The notes below the pieces were generated by a model. That model was not told the DNA's origin, ran no database searches, and worked only from the letters and a program-made list of their open reading frames with translations. The position numbers were made by a program, and so were the translations under genes. DNA of 31,320 bases, taken from the IMG/VR virus record IMGVR_UViG_3300036945_000056, positions 1 to 31,320 of that record; one strand, 5' to 3'. Source of the stretch: a virus. Positions within the stretch are counted from its first letter, which is position 1; each line of letters begins with the position of its first letter. Below, one piece after another: positions 1 to 15,404 of this stretch.

Positions 1-125
1 CTTGGCTAGTGCGTGTGTGCGCTAGTGGTAAAACAAAAAGCGTTGGTTACTTTAAAGACTTGGAATTAGCAGGCTTGGTGGCTGACGAAGCCCGTTCTAT
101 TTATCACGGCGTTTACGCCAAATAA
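1..125 (+). CDS. AP2-domain protein, C-terminal fragment (5' end outside window)
   Basis: Open from the left edge (reading frame begins at base 3) to TAA at 123-125. The visible 40 residues read as the end of an AP2 DNA-binding domain: a W-L-V-R-V strand, a short turn with G-K, then G-Y-F-K-D-L-E, an amphipathic A..A..EA helix and the closing Y-H-G-x-Y-A. In phages this domain usually sits at the C-terminus of HNH homing endonucleases or similar free-standing mobile genes, so the whole gene may be a selfish endonuclease. The nuclease part is not visible, so that is inference. It could also be an AP2-only DNA-binding protein. Confidence 0.6.
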   Translation, partial: WLVRVCASGKTKSVGYFKDLELAGLVADEARSIYHGVYAK

Positions 126-140
126 CCTAAAGGAAAAATC

Positions 141-440
141 ATGACAACATTCAACTGGACAATCAATCAACTCGATCGCAACACCTCTAACGGTTTCGTC
201 ACCACTGTGCATTACGATGTATCAGCAGTGGACGGCGATCATCTTGCATCTACCTACGGCACTATCGGTTTCACAGGCGACAACCCTACAACACCTTTTG
301 AATCTCTGACTGAAGCGCAAGTAATTGCATGGGTCAAAGACAAGCTAGGTGAGGCAACTGTAGAGGCTTCATTGGCTGCACAGATTGAAGCACAGCGTAA
401 TCCTGTTCAGGCTTCTGGCCTGCCTTGGGGCCAAGCATGA
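141..440 (+). CDS. Small phage protein, resembles DUF7936 family
   Basis: A 99-residue soluble protein starting at ATG 141 with a good AAAGGA ribosome site at about 129-134. The N-terminus (M-T-T-F-N-W-T-I-N-Q-L-D-R) and the beta-rich middle ending in an L-T-E-A-Q-V-I-A-W-V-K helix match my memory of DUF7936-type proteins, which lie next to tail-fibre or lysis genes in many podoviruses. No enzyme motif or membrane segment is seen. Its stop overlaps the next start as ATGA. Function unknown; a virion or tail accessory role would fit the position. Confidence 0.75.
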   Translation: MTTFNWTINQLDRNTSNGFVTTVHYDVSAVDGDHLASTYGTIGFTGDNPTTPFESLTEAQVIAWVKDKLGEATVEASLAAQIEAQRNPVQASGLPWGQA

Positions 441-3509: not shown

Positions 3510-4139
3510 TCAAAATGAGTGTTCTTGTGAGATTTGCTTTACGATTTTGTCGTAGTACTTCTTTGCTTCATCAACCTTAAACTTGATCTTGTCTTCAAGT
3601 GCTTTGTCGCGAACGTACTTAACAATAGTGACTCTGAGTTCAGGGTTGATGTGTTCCACTTGGTGTAAAGCCTTGTCTTCAAAGCCTACTAAGTGATCTG
3701 GTGTGTTAACAAGGCAATAGGCGATATGGGCAAAGTCTAAGTCCCAAAGCCACATATACGCCCGTAGCTGCCATTCGTAAGTCTTGTCTTCACCCTGAGA
3801 GGAAAGGACAGGAAACGTAGCTAGCGACCAACTTGATTTAATGTCAATCACCTGGTCAGCCGTAACAATGTCAGCTTCACCAGTTATCCATTCGTTTGTC
3901 TTACGCTCTGTGTTCTTTTTGTAGTTGCAAAACATCACAGAGTTAAGCAACTCAATAGAACGGTCTTCAACTAGTAAACCTTTCTCGGTGTACTTGCTAG
4001 AGAATCGTTCGTCAAAGCCGTAAACAAACTCTTTGGCTTGTTTGGTAATAGCTGTCTTTGCCCCTACGGACAAGGTTTCATCCTTGCCTTTTGGGTCAGC
4101 CATCAAATCAGCTAGTGATGACGCTCTAATCTTAAGCAT
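3510..4139 (-). CDS. YqaJ/lambda-exonuclease-like nuclease
   Basis: A 209-residue PD-(D/E)XK nuclease. Visible active-site parts are G-E-A-D (87-90), the V-I-D-I-K-S motif with Asp99 and Lys101, and the helix Q-x-x-x-Y at Gln124 to Tyr128, the pattern of YqaJ-type viral recombinases. It would resect dsDNA 5' ends to give 3' overhangs for the Erf protein, whose gene it overlaps by 8 bases. Length is normal. The early R-x-S-x-L-x-D-L-M-A-D N-terminus is also usual for this phage group. Confidence 0.85.
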   Translation of the reverse strand: MLKIRASSLADLMADPKGKDETLSVGAKTAITKQAKEFVYGFDERFSSKYTEKGLLVEDRSIELLNSVMFCNYKKNTERKTNEWITGEADIVTADQVIDIKSSWSLATFPVLSSQGEDKTYEWQLRAYMWLWDLDFAHIAYCLVNTPDHLVGFEDKALHQVEHINPELRVTIVKYVRDKALEDKIKFKVDEAKKYYDKIVKQISQEHSF

Positions 4140-4713
4140 TGGCTAAAGCCTCCATAACTTGTTTATCTTGCGCTGCTGTCAGGGTAAACGTATCGCGCAG
4201 CTTCTCAGTGGTGTACTGGCCTGCCAAAATTTTGTCGATTGCACCCTGTAGGCGTTTAGCGTCTAGCGTTGGCTTTTGCTTAACAACTTCATGCGTTTGA
4301 CCGTCAGCATCGTTATCACCTTCAGTTGGGATTGCAAACGTCTGAAATGCCATGTACTTGTAAGCGGCTGACATGGCTTTGTTTGTACCTTTGTCGCCAG
4401 AATCCATTGCTTCGCCAAAAGTTCTAGCTGTGTGCTTAGAGCCATCTTCAGCGCTTACCAAATCAAACTCAGCTTCTACAGTGATGTAAAACAATGCACC
4501 GCCTGCTTTGCTGACACGCTCCTCACTAATCCTTGTAAGCATCCGTGGAATGATGCACAAGCCGTTTTTAGCCATGATTGAAGACAAGACGTTGTAGACA
4601 GCATCAATGCCGCGAAAGTTGTAGCCAGAGCCTTGGTTGTTGCGCGATGACTTGCTAATGCCGATTGCTGCTAGTTCAGTTTGAACAGCGTTGATTGCTT
4701 GATAAACTTTCAT
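4132..4713 (-). CDS. erf: Erf family single-strand annealing protein
   Basis: A 193-residue protein when started at 4713. A longer frame to 4749 exists, but its first 12 residues overlap the upstream gene. The family signature is very clear: Y-N-F-R-G-I-D-A-V-Y-N near residues 31-41 and G-E-A-M-D-S-G-D-K-G-T-N-K-A-M-S-A-A-Y-K-Y near 100-120, followed by F-A-I-P-T-E-G-D-N-D. Erf promotes annealing of complementary ssDNA, partnered here by the exonuclease and SSB-like genes downstream. In P22 it circularises the injected genome. Confidence 0.92.
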   Translation of the reverse strand: MKVYQAINAVQTELAAIGISKSSRNNQGSGYNFRGIDAVYNVLSSIMAKNGLCIIPRMLTRISEERVSKAGGALFYITVEAEFDLVSAEDGSKHTARTFGEAMDSGDKGTNKAMSAAYKYMAFQTFAIPTEGDNDADGQTHEVVKQKPTLDAKRLQGAIDKILAGQYTTEKLRDTFTLTAAQDKQVMEALANA

Positions 4714-4820
4714 AGACCCGCCCAAATTAAGATGAATACTGTGAAGCAAGCAATGACGTAAAGAACGTGGAGGACTTGTTCGTAAAGTTGTTTTTTGGGA
4801 GGTAGATCGTACAGGTTCAT
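4710..4820 (-). CDS. Tiny membrane protein (36 aa) leading the leftward operon
   Basis: ATG at 4820-4818 has an AGGAAA ribosome site about 6 bases upstream, which decides this start over a longer frame back to 4937. Residues 1-15 are polar (N-L-Y-D-L-P-P-K-K-Q); 16-35 are a TM helix (V-L-Y-V-I-A-C-F-T-V-F-I-L-I-W). The stop overlaps the erf ATG (ATGA), so erf translation may be coupled to it. No known family. It could be an early host-membrane effector, but that is only suggested by its operon-first position. Confidence 0.6.
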   Translation of the reverse strand: MNLYDLPPKKQLYEQVLHVLYVIACFTVFILIWAGL

Positions 4821-4864
4821 GATGTTTCCTAAGTTACCGTTTGCGTTGCGCTGCGGGATATGAG

Positions 4865-4872
4865 CAGTATAA
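4865..4872 (-). promoter_or_regulatory. Possible leftward promoter -10
   Basis: The minus strand reads TATACT at plus 4866-4871, a good -10. No convincing -35 stands 16-18 bases upstream (CATCAT or GCATCA), so it would be weak or activator-dependent. It lies about 45 bases ahead of the first leftward gene (ATG at 4820). Confidence 0.35.
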
Positions 4873-4920
4873 GCTAGATTTTGAAAGTATGATGCAGAAA
4901 GAAAAAATATTTTGTCTATG

Positions 4921-4937
4921 TTGTTTGATTGCAACAA
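4921..4937. promoter_or_regulatory. Candidate operator, inverted repeat
   Basis: TTGTT at 4921-4925 and AACAA at 4933-4937 form an imperfect dyad with a 7-base centre. It covers the -35 of the rightward promoter (TTGATT, 4925-4930), so a repressor bound here would block it. The adjacent HTH protein is the obvious candidate ligand. Confidence 0.4.
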
Positions 4938-4952
4938 TTTGCCTTATACAAT
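4925..4952 (+). promoter_or_regulatory. Rightward early promoter
   Basis: TTGATT at 4925-4930, a 16-base spacer, then TACAAT at 4947-4952. A start 7 bases after the -10 falls on the A of the HTH gene's ATG at 4960, so the transcript may be leaderless. The same TTGATT-N16 layout recurs at the late promoter at 11442. Confidence 0.5.
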
Positions 4953-4959
4953 GCAGGCT

Positions 4960-5121
4960 ATGACAAAAGAACAGCTTATCAAACTAGCAGGCTCACAGAC
5001 TGAGCTTGCCAAACTGCTTGGAATTAGCCAGCCAGCAGTTTCTGCATGGGTAGAAGTGCCACAAGCGCGAATCTGGCAATTGAAATTGTTAAAACCCAAG
5101 TGGTTCAAGGAGCAAAAATGA
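4960..5121 (+). CDS. Cro/YdaS-like helix-turn-helix repressor
   Basis: A 53-residue protein from ATG 4960 (an in-frame ATG at 4951 overlaps the -10). The helix-turn-helix is clear: S-Q-T-E-L-A-K-L-L-G-I-S-Q-P-A-V-S-A-W, with recognition helix Q-P-A-V-S-A-W, the layout of YdaS/Cro. It sits at the divergent control point between leftward recombination and rightward replication, the place of lambda cro, so it probably binds the dyad at 4921-4937. No second repressor (cI-like) is visible in the divergent region. Stop overlaps the next start (ATGA). Confidence 0.85.
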   Translation: MTKEQLIKLAGSQTELAKLLGISQPAVSAWVEVPQARIWQLKLLKPKWFKEQK

Positions 5122-5423
5122 GTTACGCAGAATTAGAAATGCGCGTTATCCAGTGGGGAGAGGCGCGTAATATCGTGCAGAACAGCACCCCTATGGCTCA
5201 ATGGAAAAAGACTCAAGAGGAAGTCTTAGAGTTGCGTGATGCCATCATTGCCAACAACCGAGATGAAATGAAGGATGCTTATGGAGACATTCTGGTGACT
5301 CTCATTATGGGTTGTGCAACCGCAGACATTGGCTTAACAGAGTGTCTAGAGTTGGCCTATGAGCAGATTAAGAATCGCAAGGGCTATCTCACCAAAGAAG
5401 GCATTTTTGTGAAACAAGTGTGA
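5118..5423 (+). CDS. MazG-like nucleotide pyrophosphohydrolase
   Basis: A 101-residue protein starting at ATG 5118. The helical MazG-like metal site is seen as E-E-V-L-E (Glu34, Glu35, Glu38) and D-A-Y-G-D (Asp53, Asp57), followed by a hydrophobic helix (I-L-V-T-L-I-M-G-C) and the family ending A-Y-E-Q-I-K-N-R-K-G. In classic MazG the last motif is E-x-x-D; here it is D-x-x-x-D, as in several phage versions. It would hydrolyse NTP/dNTP or ppGpp-like nucleotides to keep the host in growth. An upstream frame extension to 5046 is ignored. Confidence 0.8.
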   Translation: MSYAELEMRVIQWGEARNIVQNSTPMAQWKKTQEEVLELRDAIIANNRDEMKDAYGDILVTLIMGCATADIGLTECLELAYEQIKNRKGYLTKEGIFVKQV

Positions 5424-11492: not shown

Positions 11493-11915
11493 ATGCCAGG
11501 CTTACTTGCCCCTGCCGCCGAGATCAAGATTGAGATTGAAGAAATCGAATCTGAAAAGCCTGTCATTGAAGGCTTGACAGCAGAATCAAACAAAAAAACC
11601 CGTGATACTCTGATCGAAACTCAGATGCTTGGCCCTGTTAAAACAGCCGAAGCTAATGGTGAGTTCTGGCGTGGTTTGTCTAATCTGTGGCGCACATCAC
11701 CAGATCAAGCCAAGCGCCGACTCTGTGCAAACTGCGAATACTTTGATGACGCACCAGAAACCATTGAAGCAATGGAAGTCGTGCCTGAAGACGAGTTTGA
11801 CAAAGATGGTGGTGGTCGTGGTTACTGCCATAAATACGAGCTAATTTGTCACAACCTTCGCGTGTGCAAGTCTTGGGAAAAAGCCCCTGTAATCATGGAA
11901 GAAGATGATGAATAA
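11493..11915 (+). CDS. Five-cysteine acidic protein, first late gene
   Basis: A 140-residue protein. The first 50 residues are acidic and probably disordered. Residues 58-70 contain F-W-R-G-L-S-N-L-W-R. The C-terminal half has C78-A-N-C81, then C112, C119 and C125 within G-Y-C-H-K-Y-E-L-I-C-H-N-L-R-V-C-K-S-W, a layout that could hold zinc or an iron-sulfur cluster. The ending is strongly acidic. Similar C-rich proteins are seen in marine and freshwater phages just before terminase genes. Role unknown; may be a late regulator. Confidence 0.75.
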   Translation: MPGLLAPAAEIKIEIEEIESEKPVIEGLTAESNKKTRDTLIETQMLGPVKTAEANGEFWRGLSNLWRTSPDQAKRRLCANCEYFDDAPETIEAMEVVPEDEFDKDGGGRGYCHKYELICHNLRVCKSWEKAPVIMEEDDE

Positions 11916-12084
11916 AGCCAAAAAGGTCGGAGCCGTAATGAAAGAGTACGGCGCTGGCAAACTTCATTCGGGCAAAGGCGGCAAGACAGTGACTAACCCA
12001 AAGCAGGCTATTGCAATTGCTTTGAGTGAGGCCAAGATGCCTATGCGTGGTCAGCGTACAGCTAAGAACAAAGCTAAAAAATAA
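11908..12084 (+). CDS. DUF6496-like small basic protein (58 aa)
   Basis: ATG 11908 overlaps the end of the previous gene, with a polypurine RBS-like stretch. The sequence shows the pattern V-M-K-E-Y-G-A-G-K-L-H-S-G-K-G-G-K-T-V and N-P-K-Q-A-I-A-I-A-L-S-E-A, the DUF6496 signature as I remember it. Very lysine-rich, so likely DNA-binding or packaged with the genome. Ends TAA at 12082-12084, 11 bases before the next start. Confidence 0.75.
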   Translation: MNKAKKVGAVMKEYGAGKLHSGKGGKTVTNPKQAIAIALSEAKMPMRGQRTAKNKAKK

Positions 12085-12095
12085 CAGGTGAAGTA

Positions 12096-13796
12096 ATGGC
12101 TGACTATCTTTCTCCTACGCCTTACGCAAACCCTCTAACAGGTTACTCAAACGACCTGATTCAGGGGTTGCTTGGCTACATGAAAGATAAGCAGCGCACT
12201 CAGCAGATGCAGGGCTTGGCTGGATTGCTTGAATCTACGGGTATTCCACAAACCGTAGAACGTGCAGCATACGCACAAAGCCCCAAAGCATTACTGGATG
12301 CGCTGACAAACGTGAATCGCGCCAACGTGCCATTACTGAAGTCTGAAACTGCTGATGCTTTGATGACAGTAGCGCCTATGGTTGGCCCTGCTGCAAGGAT
12401 GGCAGAGCGTGGCGCAATGGCTGCTGGTCGTGCTGGTGAGCGTTTGGCTGAGAGAGTTGTCCCGCAAGTTATGGAGCGTGGCGGCTTGCCAGCGCAGTTG
12501 CTTCAAGATTTGGGGCAAGGTTCTATTAGGCCAATGGATGTTTGGCATGGTTCTCCACATGGCCCATTTACTAAATTTGATCCGCTAAAAGCTGGTACTG
12601 GAGAAGGTAACGCTTCTTATGGTGAAGGCGCTTACTTGGCGCAGGCCCGTAATACTGGTGAAACGTATAAAGCAGCTTTAACAAATTCTGCTAGTGGTAA
12701 CTATTTGTATAAAGGTAAACCAATAGACCCTAATGATGAGGTAAAGCGTAGTGCTGCATATCATTTGATGGCAAATAATGGGGATAGAGAAGCTATCTAT
12801 TCACAATGGAAGCCTGAGTATTGGGAAGGAAAAAGTGGGAAACAATTTAAACGTGAAATTGAAAAGTTAGATTTTTCAAAACTTGAGCCTGCTGGCTATC
12901 TTTACAAAGTAGATTTGCCTGATGAATCAATTGCAAAGATGCTTGATTACGACAAGCCTTTAAGCAAACAAGCGCCAGAGGTGCAAAATGCTTTGGCTGA
13001 GTTGGGAATCTCAGTTGATAAAAAGAAGATGGGCGAATACGAAGATGCGCTACTTGACGCATTAACTAACCCTAACGCAACAGGACAGTTGCCAAAGCAG
13101 CCACTTGACCTAACTGGCGAACAAATCTTGAAAGAGCTTGAGCGCAATGCTTCTAGGTACTTTCCAAATGCAATGGAAGGCAAGGAACTTACAGCGGCAA
13201 TGATTAACCCAAGGGCGGGTGTAAGTGAATTGCTTGCTAAAAAGGGAGTTCCTGGCGTTAGATACTTAGATCAAATGAGCCGTGATGCTGGAGAAGGCAC
13301 ATCAAACTTTGTTGTGTTCCCAAAGTATCAAGACCTTTTAACAATCAAAGAGATTAACGACAAGCCTGTTGGTGGTCTACTAGGACAAGCAAAGTCTGCT
13401 TTTAATGTAACGAGAAAAGATGCTTCTGACATTTTTGGTGCTGGTGCTGAACGCCTGAAATATACAGACCCTAAAAGCGGTGGAACTATGGAAGTCTTGG
13501 CAAAACCAGACGGCACAGCCTCGGTTTTGAGTCTTGAAGTTCCTGAAACGTCTAGAGGAAAAGGCATTGGGCAAAGCCTGCAAGCGCAAGTAATGCAAGA
13601 CTTTCCTGAAATGATGGGCCAAGTATCGTCTAAGGCCGCTGCAAAGACTGCTTACAGGTTAGGTCGTAGACCACCATTTGAGCCAGATGCAACGCTAGAA
13701 GATGTTTACAAATTGATGGATGAGAATTCATCTGTAAACCTTGTCTCTCCTGAAATGCAGAAACGATTTGGACAAAGAACAAATCTGTTAGACTGA
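12096..13796 (+). CDS. PARP-like ADP-ribosyltransferase fused to GNAT-like domain (polyvalent protein)
   Basis: A 566-residue protein with AGGTG ahead of ATG 12096. Residues 1-140 are helical and A/G/M-rich. From 148 an ART domain is visible: V-W-H151-G-S-P-H-G aligns with the PARP L-W-H-G-S, and Y-G-E-G-A-Y180-L-A with PARP G-K-G-I-Y-F-A. The third catalytic strand is G-E-G-T-S-N404-F-V-V-F, with Asn where PARPs have Glu. After 450 a GNAT-like motif A is seen: L-E-V-P-E-T-S-R487-G-K-G-I-G-Q-S-L. Such ART-PolyVal plus GNAT combinations are typical of phage polyvalent proteins that are packaged or made early to modify host proteins. It lies just upstream of the terminase genes. Confidence 0.75.
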   Translation: MADYLSPTPYANPLTGYSNDLIQGLLGYMKDKQRTQQMQGLAGLLESTGIPQTVERAAYAQSPKALLDALTNVNRANVPLLKSETADALMTVAPMVGPAARMAERGAMAAGRAGERLAERVVPQVMERGGLPAQLLQDLGQGSIRPMDVWHGSPHGPFTKFDPLKAGTGEGNASYGEGAYLAQARNTGETYKAALTNSASGNYLYKGKPIDPNDEVKRSAAYHLMANNGDREAIYSQWKPEYWEGKSGKQFKREIEKLDFSKLEPAGYLYKVDLPDESIAKMLDYDKPLSKQAPEVQNALAELGISVDKKKMGEYEDALLDALTNPNATGQLPKQPLDLTGEQILKELERNASRYFPNAMEGKELTAAMINPRAGVSELLAKKGVPGVRYLDQMSRDAGEGTSNFVVFPKYQDLLTIKEINDKPVGGLLGQAKSAFNVTRKDASDIFGAGAERLKYTDPKSGGTMEVLAKPDGTASVLSLEVPETSRGKGIGQSLQAQVMQDFPEMMGQVSSKAAAKTAYRLGRRPPFEPDATLEDVYKLMDENSSVNLVSPEMQKRFGQRTNLLD

Positions 13797-13842
13797 AGTT
13801 AGATTAACTAGACCAACAAGCCGTAAGGAATTGGTAAACAAA

Positions 13843-14160
13843 ATGAATAAATTAGAAAAGGGAAATTCTCAAAACCTCACTAATCGAGGTAGAGGAAGAC
13901 CAAAGGGCGCAATCAATAAAACAACGATTGAGTTCCGAGAGACTATTCAAAAGCTATTAGATAAGAACACAGATAACGTATCTATCTGGTTAGAAGACAT
14001 TGCCAATGGTGACCCTTTGACAGATCGCAAACCAGACCCTTACAAGGCTTTGGATATGCTTTCTAAGTTGGCTGAATACGCAGCGCCTAAGTTGGCCCGA
14101 ACCGAACACGTTGGTAACAACGATGGCCCAATTGAGATGAAGGTTACATGGGCGAAATAG
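13843..14160 (+). CDS. terS: Putative small terminase subunit
   Basis: Probably starts at ATG 13843 (105 residues); a TTG at 13831 in frame is an alternative, as AAGGA stands 14 bases from the ATG. N-terminal basic R-G-R-G-R-P-K-G-A-I-N-K-T-T is the hook-like motif common in phage small terminases. This is followed by helices (I-E-F-R-E-T-I-Q-K-L-L-D and A-L-D-M-L-S-K-L-A-E-Y-A-A-P-K-L-A-R). It overlaps the large subunit start by 13 bases. Position supports the call more than sequence does. Confidence 0.65.
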   Translation: MNKLEKGNSQNLTNRGRGRPKGAINKTTIEFRETIQKLLDKNTDNVSIWLEDIANGDPLTDRKPDPYKALDMLSKLAEYAAPKLARTEHVGNNDGPIEMKVTWAK

Positions 14161-15404
14161 TTATCCCCTACGCGCCAAGGGAACAACAGCTTCAAATTCA
14201 CGAACTGATTGACGAAAAGAGATTTACAGTCGTTGTTGCACATCGAAGGATGGGAAAGACTGTATCAGCCATCAATCACCTGATTAAAGCTGCAATCCTG
14301 AATGGCAAGGAAAACCCGCGTTACGCTTACATTGCTCCTACATACGGACAAGCAAAGCGGGTAGCGTGGGACTACCTTGTTAAGTACGCCATGCCGATGG
14401 GTGGCACTCAAAACATATCTGAGTTGCGGGTTGACTTCTGGGGTCGTAGGATTCAGCTTTACGGCTCAGACAACCCTGAGAGCCTTCGTGGGCAATACTT
14501 TGATGGTGTGATACTTGATGAAATCGGCGACCAAAACCCAAAAATATGGACAGATATTGTCCGCCCCGCACTCTCAGACCGCCTTGGCTGGTGCTTATTT
14601 ATTGGCACTCCAAAAGGCCATAACCACTTTAAAGACCTCAGAGACAGAGCCGAAGCCGAGGCCGATTGGGGTTTGCTTGAGTTCAAAGCCAGCCAAACAA
14701 AAGTAATCGCAGAAAGTGAACTAGAAGCCGCCAAGTCTGAGATGGGTGAAGACAAGTATCTCCAAGAGTTTGAGTGTTCGTTTAACGCTGCTGTGGAGGG
14801 TTCTTACTACGGTCAGATTCTTAACGACTTAGAGACAAAGAATCACATTCAAGAGATTCCAAGAGATGACCTTTGCCGAACAATCACGGCTTGGGACTTG
14901 GGGATGGGAGACAGTACCGCTATTTGGGTGGCTCAGATCGCAGGCACAGAGATTCGTCTGGTTGACTATTACGAGAACAACGGCGTAGGTTTGGACAAGT
15001 ATGTGACTTGGCTTAAAGAGAACAAGTGGGACACAGCAGAGCAAATTCTGCCGCATGACGTACAGGTTAGAGAGCTAGGTTCTGGCAAAAGCCGCCTTAA
15101 AGTCTTACAGGAAGCTGGTCTAAACGTCAGGGTAGCCCCAAGGATGAGCGTTGATGATGGGATTCAGGCGGTTAGACGTCTGCTGCCTAGATGCTGGTTC
15201 AACGTGCCAAACGTAAAGGTAGGCTTGGATTGTCTAAGAAACTACCGCCGAGACTATGACGACAAGCGCAAAGTATTCTTTGATCGACCCCTACATGATT
15301 GGTCAAGCCATGCCAGTGACGCTTTTAGGTACTTGGCTATCGGCATGGATGAAGGTTCAACGTGGTCAAAATCTATTAACAAAGCACCGAAGTGGGTAAT
15401 CTGA
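14148..15404 (+). CDS. terL: Terminase large subunit
   Basis: A 418-residue protein. ATPase: Walker A A-H-R-R-M-G-K37-T38, Walker B V-I-L-D124-E125 and coupling motif F-I-G-T-P-K-G (151-157). Nuclease (RNase H-like): T-A-W-D250-L-G-M-G-D, L-P-H-D304 and H-A-S-D391-A-F-R-Y. All expected acidic residues are present, so it should be active. It translocates DNA into the procapsid and cuts the concatemer. Slightly shorter than T4/P22 types. Stop TGATG overlaps the next start. Confidence 0.95.
   Translation: MGEIVIPYAPREQQLQIHELIDEKRFTVVVAHRRMGKTVSAINHLIKAAILNGKENPRYAYIAPTYGQAKRVAWDYLVKYAMPMGGTQNISELRVDFWGRRIQLYGSDNPESLRGQYFDGVILDEIGDQNPKIWTDIVRPALSDRLGWCLFIGTPKGHNHFKDLRDRAEAEADWGLLEFKASQTKVIAESELEAAKSEMGEDKYLQEFECSFNAAVEGSYYGQILNDLETKNHIQEIPRDDLCRTITAWDLGMGDSTAIWVAQIAGTEIRLVDYYENNGVGLDKYVTWLKENKWDTAEQILPHDVQVRELGSGKSRLKVLQEAGLNVRVAPRMSVDDGIQAVRRLLPRCWFNVPNVKVGLDCLRNYRRDYDDKRKVFFDRPLHDWSSHASDAFRYLAIGMDEGSTWSKSINKAPKWVI

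What the first reader, a model, noticed from the sequence alone, without database searches (positions are those of the whole stretch)
12096..13796. PARP-like transferase with an Asn in place of the catalytic Glu, fused to a GNAT-like domain
His151 (V-W-H-G-S), Tyr180 (G-E-G-A-Y) and the third strand S-N404-F-V-V-F line up with the PARP H-Y-E triad, but the Glu is Asn. After about 450 residues a GNAT R-G-K-G-I-G loop follows. Two protein-modifying folds in one late gene next to terminase suggest a packaged effector that modifies host or virion targets. ART-PolyVal proteins are known (established), the combination and the H-Y-N form here are my reading.
Basis: partly seen in the sequence, partly recalled or inferred. 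Interest (0 to 1): 0.75.

Follow-up and report, generated by a model that had tools for sequence, protein, structure and literature searches.

The report
Phage cargo protein with swappable enzymes
The gene encodes a small "polyvalent" phage protein, probably carried in the virus particle, in which an ADP-ribose-attaching enzyme and an acetyltransferase-like part sit in a slot beside the DNA-packaging genes; in close relatives the same slot holds quite different enzymes, so the locus looks like an exchangeable arsenal against the host.

Summary
In detail: ORF 12096-13796 (566 aa) has His151, Tyr180 and Asn404 as stated, then a GNAT-type R-G-K-G-I-G loop. HMMs, a structure model (pLDDT 87.6) and fold comparison support an ART of the ART-PolyVal/PARP/diphtheria type; the GNAT call is weaker (pLDDT 67) but consistent. 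Two points of the interpretation change. First, Asn is no lost Glu: His, Tyr and Asn are invariant in all 64 viral relatives aligned, and Asn is present in all 26 bacterial-contig relatives that reach that strand, so H-Y-N marks a large clade. Second, ART plus GNAT was already described for polyvalent proteins (Iyer 2017). New here is the architecture. An N-terminal region with no database match is joined, in one slot mostly beside terminase, to at least nine kinds of effector (ART, two GNATs, PBECR5 nuclease, LPD23 metallopeptidase, others), and 56% of the distinct proteins end in an LL(D/E/G) tail against 2.4% of background ORFs. Relatives with 92% identical TerL carry ART only, GNAT only or PBECR5. 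Best reading: a polyvalent effector built like a polymorphic toxin, probably packaged and injected. Packaging and activity are inferred, not shown. New variant of a known kind.

The parts
12096..13796 (+). polyvalent effector gene, 566 aa
   Evidence: open frame; relatives in viral contigs
12096..12530 (+). recurring N-terminal region, aa 1-145, proposed delivery part
   Evidence: same region joined to many different enzymes; no Pfam or PHROG match
12404..12500 (+). hinge, the best conserved stretch of the N-terminal region (AMAAGRAGERLAERVVPQVMERGG); left edge of the exchanged block
   Evidence: alignment A1; blastn blocks in L005-L013 and others
12531..13370 (+). ART domain, aa 146-425; His151 at 12546-12548, Tyr180 at 12633-12635, Asn404 at 13305-13307
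   Evidence: invariant columns; PF18760 hits in relatives; model and fold comparison
12665..12889 (+). variable insert inside the ART between the Tyr strand and YLYKVDLP
   Evidence: gap in DNA matches to L001 and L004; alignment A3
13371..13385 (+). GGLLG joint, aa 426-430, where ART-only relatives end in LLD or LLE
13401..13769 (+). GNAT-like domain, aa 436-558; loop RGKGIG at 13554-13571
   Evidence: Acetyltransf_CG in 13 of 16 relatives; moderate model with GNAT matches
13782..13793 (+). C-terminal NLLD tail; right edge of the exchanged block lies at 13780-13855
   Evidence: LL tails 38/68 against 19/808; codons differ; blastn blocks
11493..11915 (+). conserved upstream neighbour, 140 aa, unknown function
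   Evidence: upstream in 43 of the 54 loci with terminase downstream
13831..14160 (+). probable small terminase gene
   Evidence: position before TerL; phrog_15261 of unknown function
14148..15404 (+). large terminase gene
   Evidence: Terminase_6N weak hit; 62% to the TerL of phage Venkman

Best explanation
The gene is a compact polyvalent effector of a podovirus-like phage. Its recurring N-terminal region (aa 1-145) and short C-terminal LL tail are the delivery parts, and the block between them is exchanged cargo. The protein is made with the head and packaging genes, loaded into the virion and injected with the DNA. In the new host the H-Y-N ART transfers ADP-ribose from NAD+ to a host macromolecule and the GNAT-like domain acts as a second modifier, so as to take over the host or blunt its defence. 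SHOWN here: the domain make-up, invariant H/Y/N, conserved genomic slot, cargo exchange between close relatives, and the recurrent tail. INFERRED: packaging, injection, catalysis and target.
For: ART: PF18760 hits in 46 of 64 relatives, model pLDDT 87.6, top structural matches an ejectosome chain of cyanophage A4, diphtheria toxin and tankyrase. Active site: H/Y/N invariant in 64, Asn in 26 of 26 bacterial-contig relatives. GNAT. Slot: 54 of 97 loci with terminase downstream and 14 with TerL directly upstream. Exchange. Tail. Accessory: not seen beside terminase in cultured relatives. Same kinds of domain (ART, GNAT, PBECR, LPD23, MPTase) as polyvalent proteins.
Against: No virion proteomics was available for this phage or a near relative. 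No acidic residue at the Glu position. The central Gly of the GNAT loop is Lys/Arg in some relatives, so that domain may not bind acetyl-CoA in all. The common N-terminal region resembles no virion protein tested. In 23 of 97 loci no terminase was seen next to the gene.
Confidence: 0.6

Rival explanations
1. It is a late enzyme that stays in the infected cell (takeover, superinfection exclusion or toxin-like role) and is never packaged.
For: No packaging signal is proven; neighbours upstream include non-virion genes.
Against: Different enzymes share the same N-terminal region and tail, which suggests common delivery; polyvalent effectors are argued to be packaged.
Confidence: 0.2
2. The ART is not a transferase: with Asn in place of Glu it is a pseudo-enzyme or only binds or hydrolyses NAD+ or ADP-ribose compounds.
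For: The acid that catalyses in PARPs and diphtheria toxin is missing in every relative.
Against: His, Tyr and Asn are all strictly kept across phyla, which suggests a working site; from general knowledge some mono-ARTs such as PARP10 work without the Glu.
Confidence: 0.25
3. It is a structural or assembly protein of the head or ejection apparatus, and the enzyme folds are incidental.
For: Its position among head genes, and the best structural match lies in an ejectosome protein.
Against: No such gene was seen beside terminase in cultured relatives; cargo differs between phages with nearly identical heads.
Confidence: 0.12
4. The LL tail is only a recombination joint left by cassette exchange, with no function as a tag.
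For: In the nearest relatives the tail and the following intergenic DNA are conserved and lie at the exchange boundary.
Against: In farther relatives the peptide is kept with different codons and different downstream DNA.
Confidence: 0.35

Closest known systems
Polyvalent proteins of phages (Iyer et al. 2017, PMC5512222), including the ART+GNAT type with BAR32501.1
   Same: ART next to GNAT in one polypeptide, head-gene neighbourhood, PBECR, LPD23 and metallopeptidase domains as alternatives
   Different: Compact single slot with a recurring N-terminal region and C-terminal tail; the paper says polyvalent proteins do not follow the fixed-N-terminus, variable-toxin plan; its ART is given as H-Y-D, here H-Y-N
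ART-PolyVal, PF18760
   Same: Relatives match, strongest over the His and Tyr half
   Different: The window protein itself gives no hit; long insert, Asn instead of the Glu seen in the compact Tunturi_5 domain
MuF polymorphic toxins of temperate phages (PMC5576092)
   Same: Fixed N-terminal region, exchanged C-terminal effectors, gene close to terminase or portal
   Different: Another N-terminal region; no MuF domain found; no immunity gene apparent between this gene and terS
T4 Alt
   Same: Proposed role: packaged ADP-ribosyltransferase injected with DNA
   Different: Alt is R-S-E, not H-Y-N
Cyanophage A4 ejectosome protein (PDB 9K3A chain B, taken to be A4L_27)
   Same: ART-like fold with YHGT and GTYF motifs inside a virion ejection protein
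   Different: No sequence similarity found by profile; third residue looks like Thr; 1717-aa protein

Membership tests
Polyvalent proteins | Two or more effector domains of the described set in one phage or plasmid polypeptide | tested here: met
   ART plus GNAT-like domain
Polyvalent proteins | Gene in a portal-terminase head/packaging neighbourhood | tested here: met
   window gene order; 68 of 97 loci next to terminase
Polyvalent proteins | Delivered into the host with the DNA | not testable with these tools
   needs virion proteomics or an injection assay
ART-PolyVal (PF18760) | Profile score over the curated cut-off for the window protein | tested here: not met
   no hit for the window protein; L003 30.9 and phiGT1_5 30.0 bits against a cut-off of 31.2
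ART superfamily, H-Y-[E/D/Q] clade | His on strand 1 and Tyr on strand 2 | tested here: met
ART superfamily, H-Y-[E/D/Q] clade | Glu, Asp or Gln at the third catalytic position | tested here: not met
   Asn in 64 of 64; Asp392 (62 of 64) is another candidate
ART superfamily | Fold | tested here: met
   VIA-align Z 10.2 to 7 with ART chains; Foldseek alone was not significant
GNAT superfamily | Acetyl-CoA loop R/Q-x-x-G-x-G/A after strand 4 | tested here: met
   R487-G492 between strand 61-67 and helix 77-88 of the model; not kept in all relatives
GNAT superfamily | Fold | tested here: inconclusive
   model pLDDT 67; mostly GNAT matches but best Z 7.8 and no E<=0.001
MuF polymorphic toxins | MuF domain at the N-terminus | tested here: not met
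   no MuF hit in Pfam or PHROGs

The most novel reading that the evidence does not exclude
A single-slot polymorphic effector system of short-tailed phages: an undescribed N-terminal module and a C-terminal LLD-type tag sort interchangeable host-modifying enzymes into the virion, one of them a distinct H-Y-N class of ADP-ribosyltransferase that works without the catalytic acid.
Probability: 0.33. Interest if true: 0.75.

Novelty: new variant of a known kind. Interest (0 to 1): 0.52.

Why it matters
If right, one small locus with fixed ends and exchangeable cargo lets one read from sequence which enzymes podophages send ahead of their genome, and gives a portable test of what sorts proteins into a phage head. 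It also raises a clear enzymology question: how a widespread ART clade works with an invariant Asn where PARPs have Glu.

Tried and rejected
Direct Pfam and PHROG search of the protein gave almost nothing, so relatives were used. Foldseek against PDB gave no significant ART match; VIA-align re-ranking did. A profile of the ART clade matched no solved ART strongly (best PARP12, E 0.15) and not the cyanophage A4 protein. Profile comparison of the N-terminal region with four other proteins of the head/ejection region of this phage found nothing. My first count of terminase neighbours (75 of 110) mis-scored TerL genes lying upstream and counted some contigs twice; one search is the corrected count. 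The first background for the LL tail (1/262) used few gene families; one search uses 808 ORFs. MuF membership was rejected. The view that Asn is a lesion of this one protein was rejected. I found no paper describing an H-Y-N ART or this slot, but the library lacks most subscription journals and preprints.

Full report
1. What is there. The window is a whole IMG/VR record of 31,320 bases from a phage with an SU10-type portal (E 1.6e-217). Its TerL is closest, in the phage collection, to an uncultured Manatee Spring phage (63%) and, among cultured phages, to Methylophilales phage Venkman (62%) and Pelagibacter phages (about 46%). ORF 12096-13796 encodes 566 aa.

2. The ART. The single sequence has no Pfam ART hit, but its relatives do: L003 5.6e-7, phiGT1_5 1e-6, and 46 of 64 aligned domains at E<=0.01, best 1.9e-8. 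In the 64-sequence alignment ten columns are invariant, among them H151, Y180 and N404. Twenty-six relatives on bacterial contigs from many phyla, most of them in long proteins of 1,000-2,800 aa, also have Asn there (ends read by eye). The AlphaFold2 model (pLDDT 87.6, pTM 0.82) puts His on strand 6-12, Tyr on strand 38-41 and Asn at the start of strand 262-266 (model residue + 141 = protein residue). VIA-align ranks a cyanophage A4 ejectosome chain (Z 10.2, 164 residues, rmsd 5.6), diphtheria toxin (8.4, 132, 4.2) and tankyrase (8.0, 127, 3.7) highest. The ends of the diphtheria-toxin alignment (3..281 on 14..166) are consistent with His151 on His21 and Asn404 on Glu148 if the alignment is ungapped near the ends; this is inference, since no coordinates were available. 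Foldseek alone gave no significant hit. In the jumbo phage Tunturi_5 one protein holds a compact ART-PolyVal domain with Glu at this place (QEVIAFES), GNAT hits, a NUDIX domain and an H-Y-N ART. So H-Y-N and H-Y-E forms coexist, and Asn marks a clade. Iyer et al. give H-Y-D for polyvalent ARTs; conserved Asp392 (62/64) may be that D.

3. The GNAT. Acetyltransf_CG hits 13 of 16 relatives, best 5e-4. The model is only moderate (pLDDT 67) but shows four strands, the loop and the following helix, and most of the structural matches are GNATs. The best conserved part is not the loop but the stretch QVMQDFP..GQVSSKAAAKTAYRLGRRP; in L113, L106, L105 and L116 the central Gly of the loop is Lys or Arg. 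I hold the fold likely and acetyltransferase activity open.

4. The locus is modular. Proteins sharing the N-terminal 145 aa carry quite different continuations: ART, this GNAT, another GNAT (L009), PBECR5 nuclease (L007, 7e-23), LPD23 with metallopeptidase signatures (L016, L062), a MATCAP-like domain (L060, weak), PcfJ (L099), a ParB C-terminal-like domain (L084), a compact ART-PolyVal (L053), and several with no database match, the commonest among them. Of 97 distinct loci, 54 have terminase within 1 kb downstream (43 of them with a homologue of the 11493-11915 gene upstream), 14 have TerL directly upstream, 6 end at the contig edge and 23 show neither. Against the window, L005 (portal 97% over the aligned part, TerL 92%) has GNAT only, L013 (97%, 92%) ART only and L007 (TerL 92%) PBECR5. 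Among pairs with portal identity 90-95%, 20 of 63 share an effector, at median 52% identity. DNA comparison shows matching left and right flanks with breaks at the hinge (12404-12500) and at the tail (13780-13855), and in L001 and L004 a further gap inside the ART at about 12665-12889. The GNAT block of L005 is 95% identical in DNA while its TerL-portal flank is 88%, which points to recent transfer. Genes annotated beside terminase in cultured relatives do not include such a gene, and neither Venkman nor HTVC106P has a PF18760 match, so it is accessory.

5. The tail. Of 68 distinct family C-termini, 38 have LL within the last four residues (LLD, LLE, LLGQ, LLGR, LLK), against 19 of 808 background ORFs (p about 1e-33, related sequences not corrected for). 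In the nearest relatives the tail is also conserved DNA, but farther away the peptide persists with other codons. The same motif stands at joints between modules: here GGLLG at residues 426-430, where ART-only relatives end in LLD or LLE. A second phage group has another shared tail (DPFGNTI..[ST]R). Either these are sorting or docking tags, or they are joints of recombination; both may be true.

6. How it most likely works. By analogy with T4 Alt and with the argument for polyvalent proteins (PMC5512222, PMC9503650), the protein is loaded during head assembly and injected. The ART then modifies a host target, probably by mono-ADP-ribosylation with help from the substrate, given the missing acid; the GNAT acts second. 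Delivery by the common ends is inference. The strongest indirect support is that unrelated enzymes share those ends and that an ART-like fold sits in a solved phage ejectosome. Not shown: packaging, activity, target.

7. Known or new. ART+GNAT polyvalent proteins are known (2017). New, as far as I could search, are the H-Y-N signature of the clade and the single-slot plan with common N-terminus and tail, a plan that Iyer et al. say polyvalent proteins in general do not follow. MuF toxins follow such a plan but with another N-terminal domain and in temperate phages. I file this as a new variant of a known kind.

Noticed in passing
window 13855-14128: The probable small-terminase gene is itself exchanged: DNA matches to L005, L007 and L013 stop at 13855 and resume at 14128.
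   Followed up: partly
L014:220-1704, L079:2376-3953 and a cluster of 29 loci: The commonest partner of the N-terminal region outside the ART group is a domain of about 330 aa with no significant Pfam or PHROG match: a candidate new effector family.
   Followed up: partly
L009:3638-4009 and 3930-5396: The N-terminal region is split over two overlapping frames, so this copy is frameshifted or misassembled.
   Followed up: no
window 11911-12084: A 58-aa lysine-rich ORF (KEYGAGKLHSGKGG...TNPKQAIAIALSEA) directly upstream of the gene, recalled as DUF6496-like but not tested.
   Followed up: no
window 11493-11915: Conserved upstream neighbour with several cysteines (CANCEYF...GYCHKYELICHNLRVCKSW), no Pfam or PHROG assignment found; possibly metal-binding.
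   Followed up: no
L106, L113, L066-L074: A second phage group has TerL directly upstream of the gene and a different shared C-terminal tail, DPFGNTI..[ST]R.
   Followed up: partly
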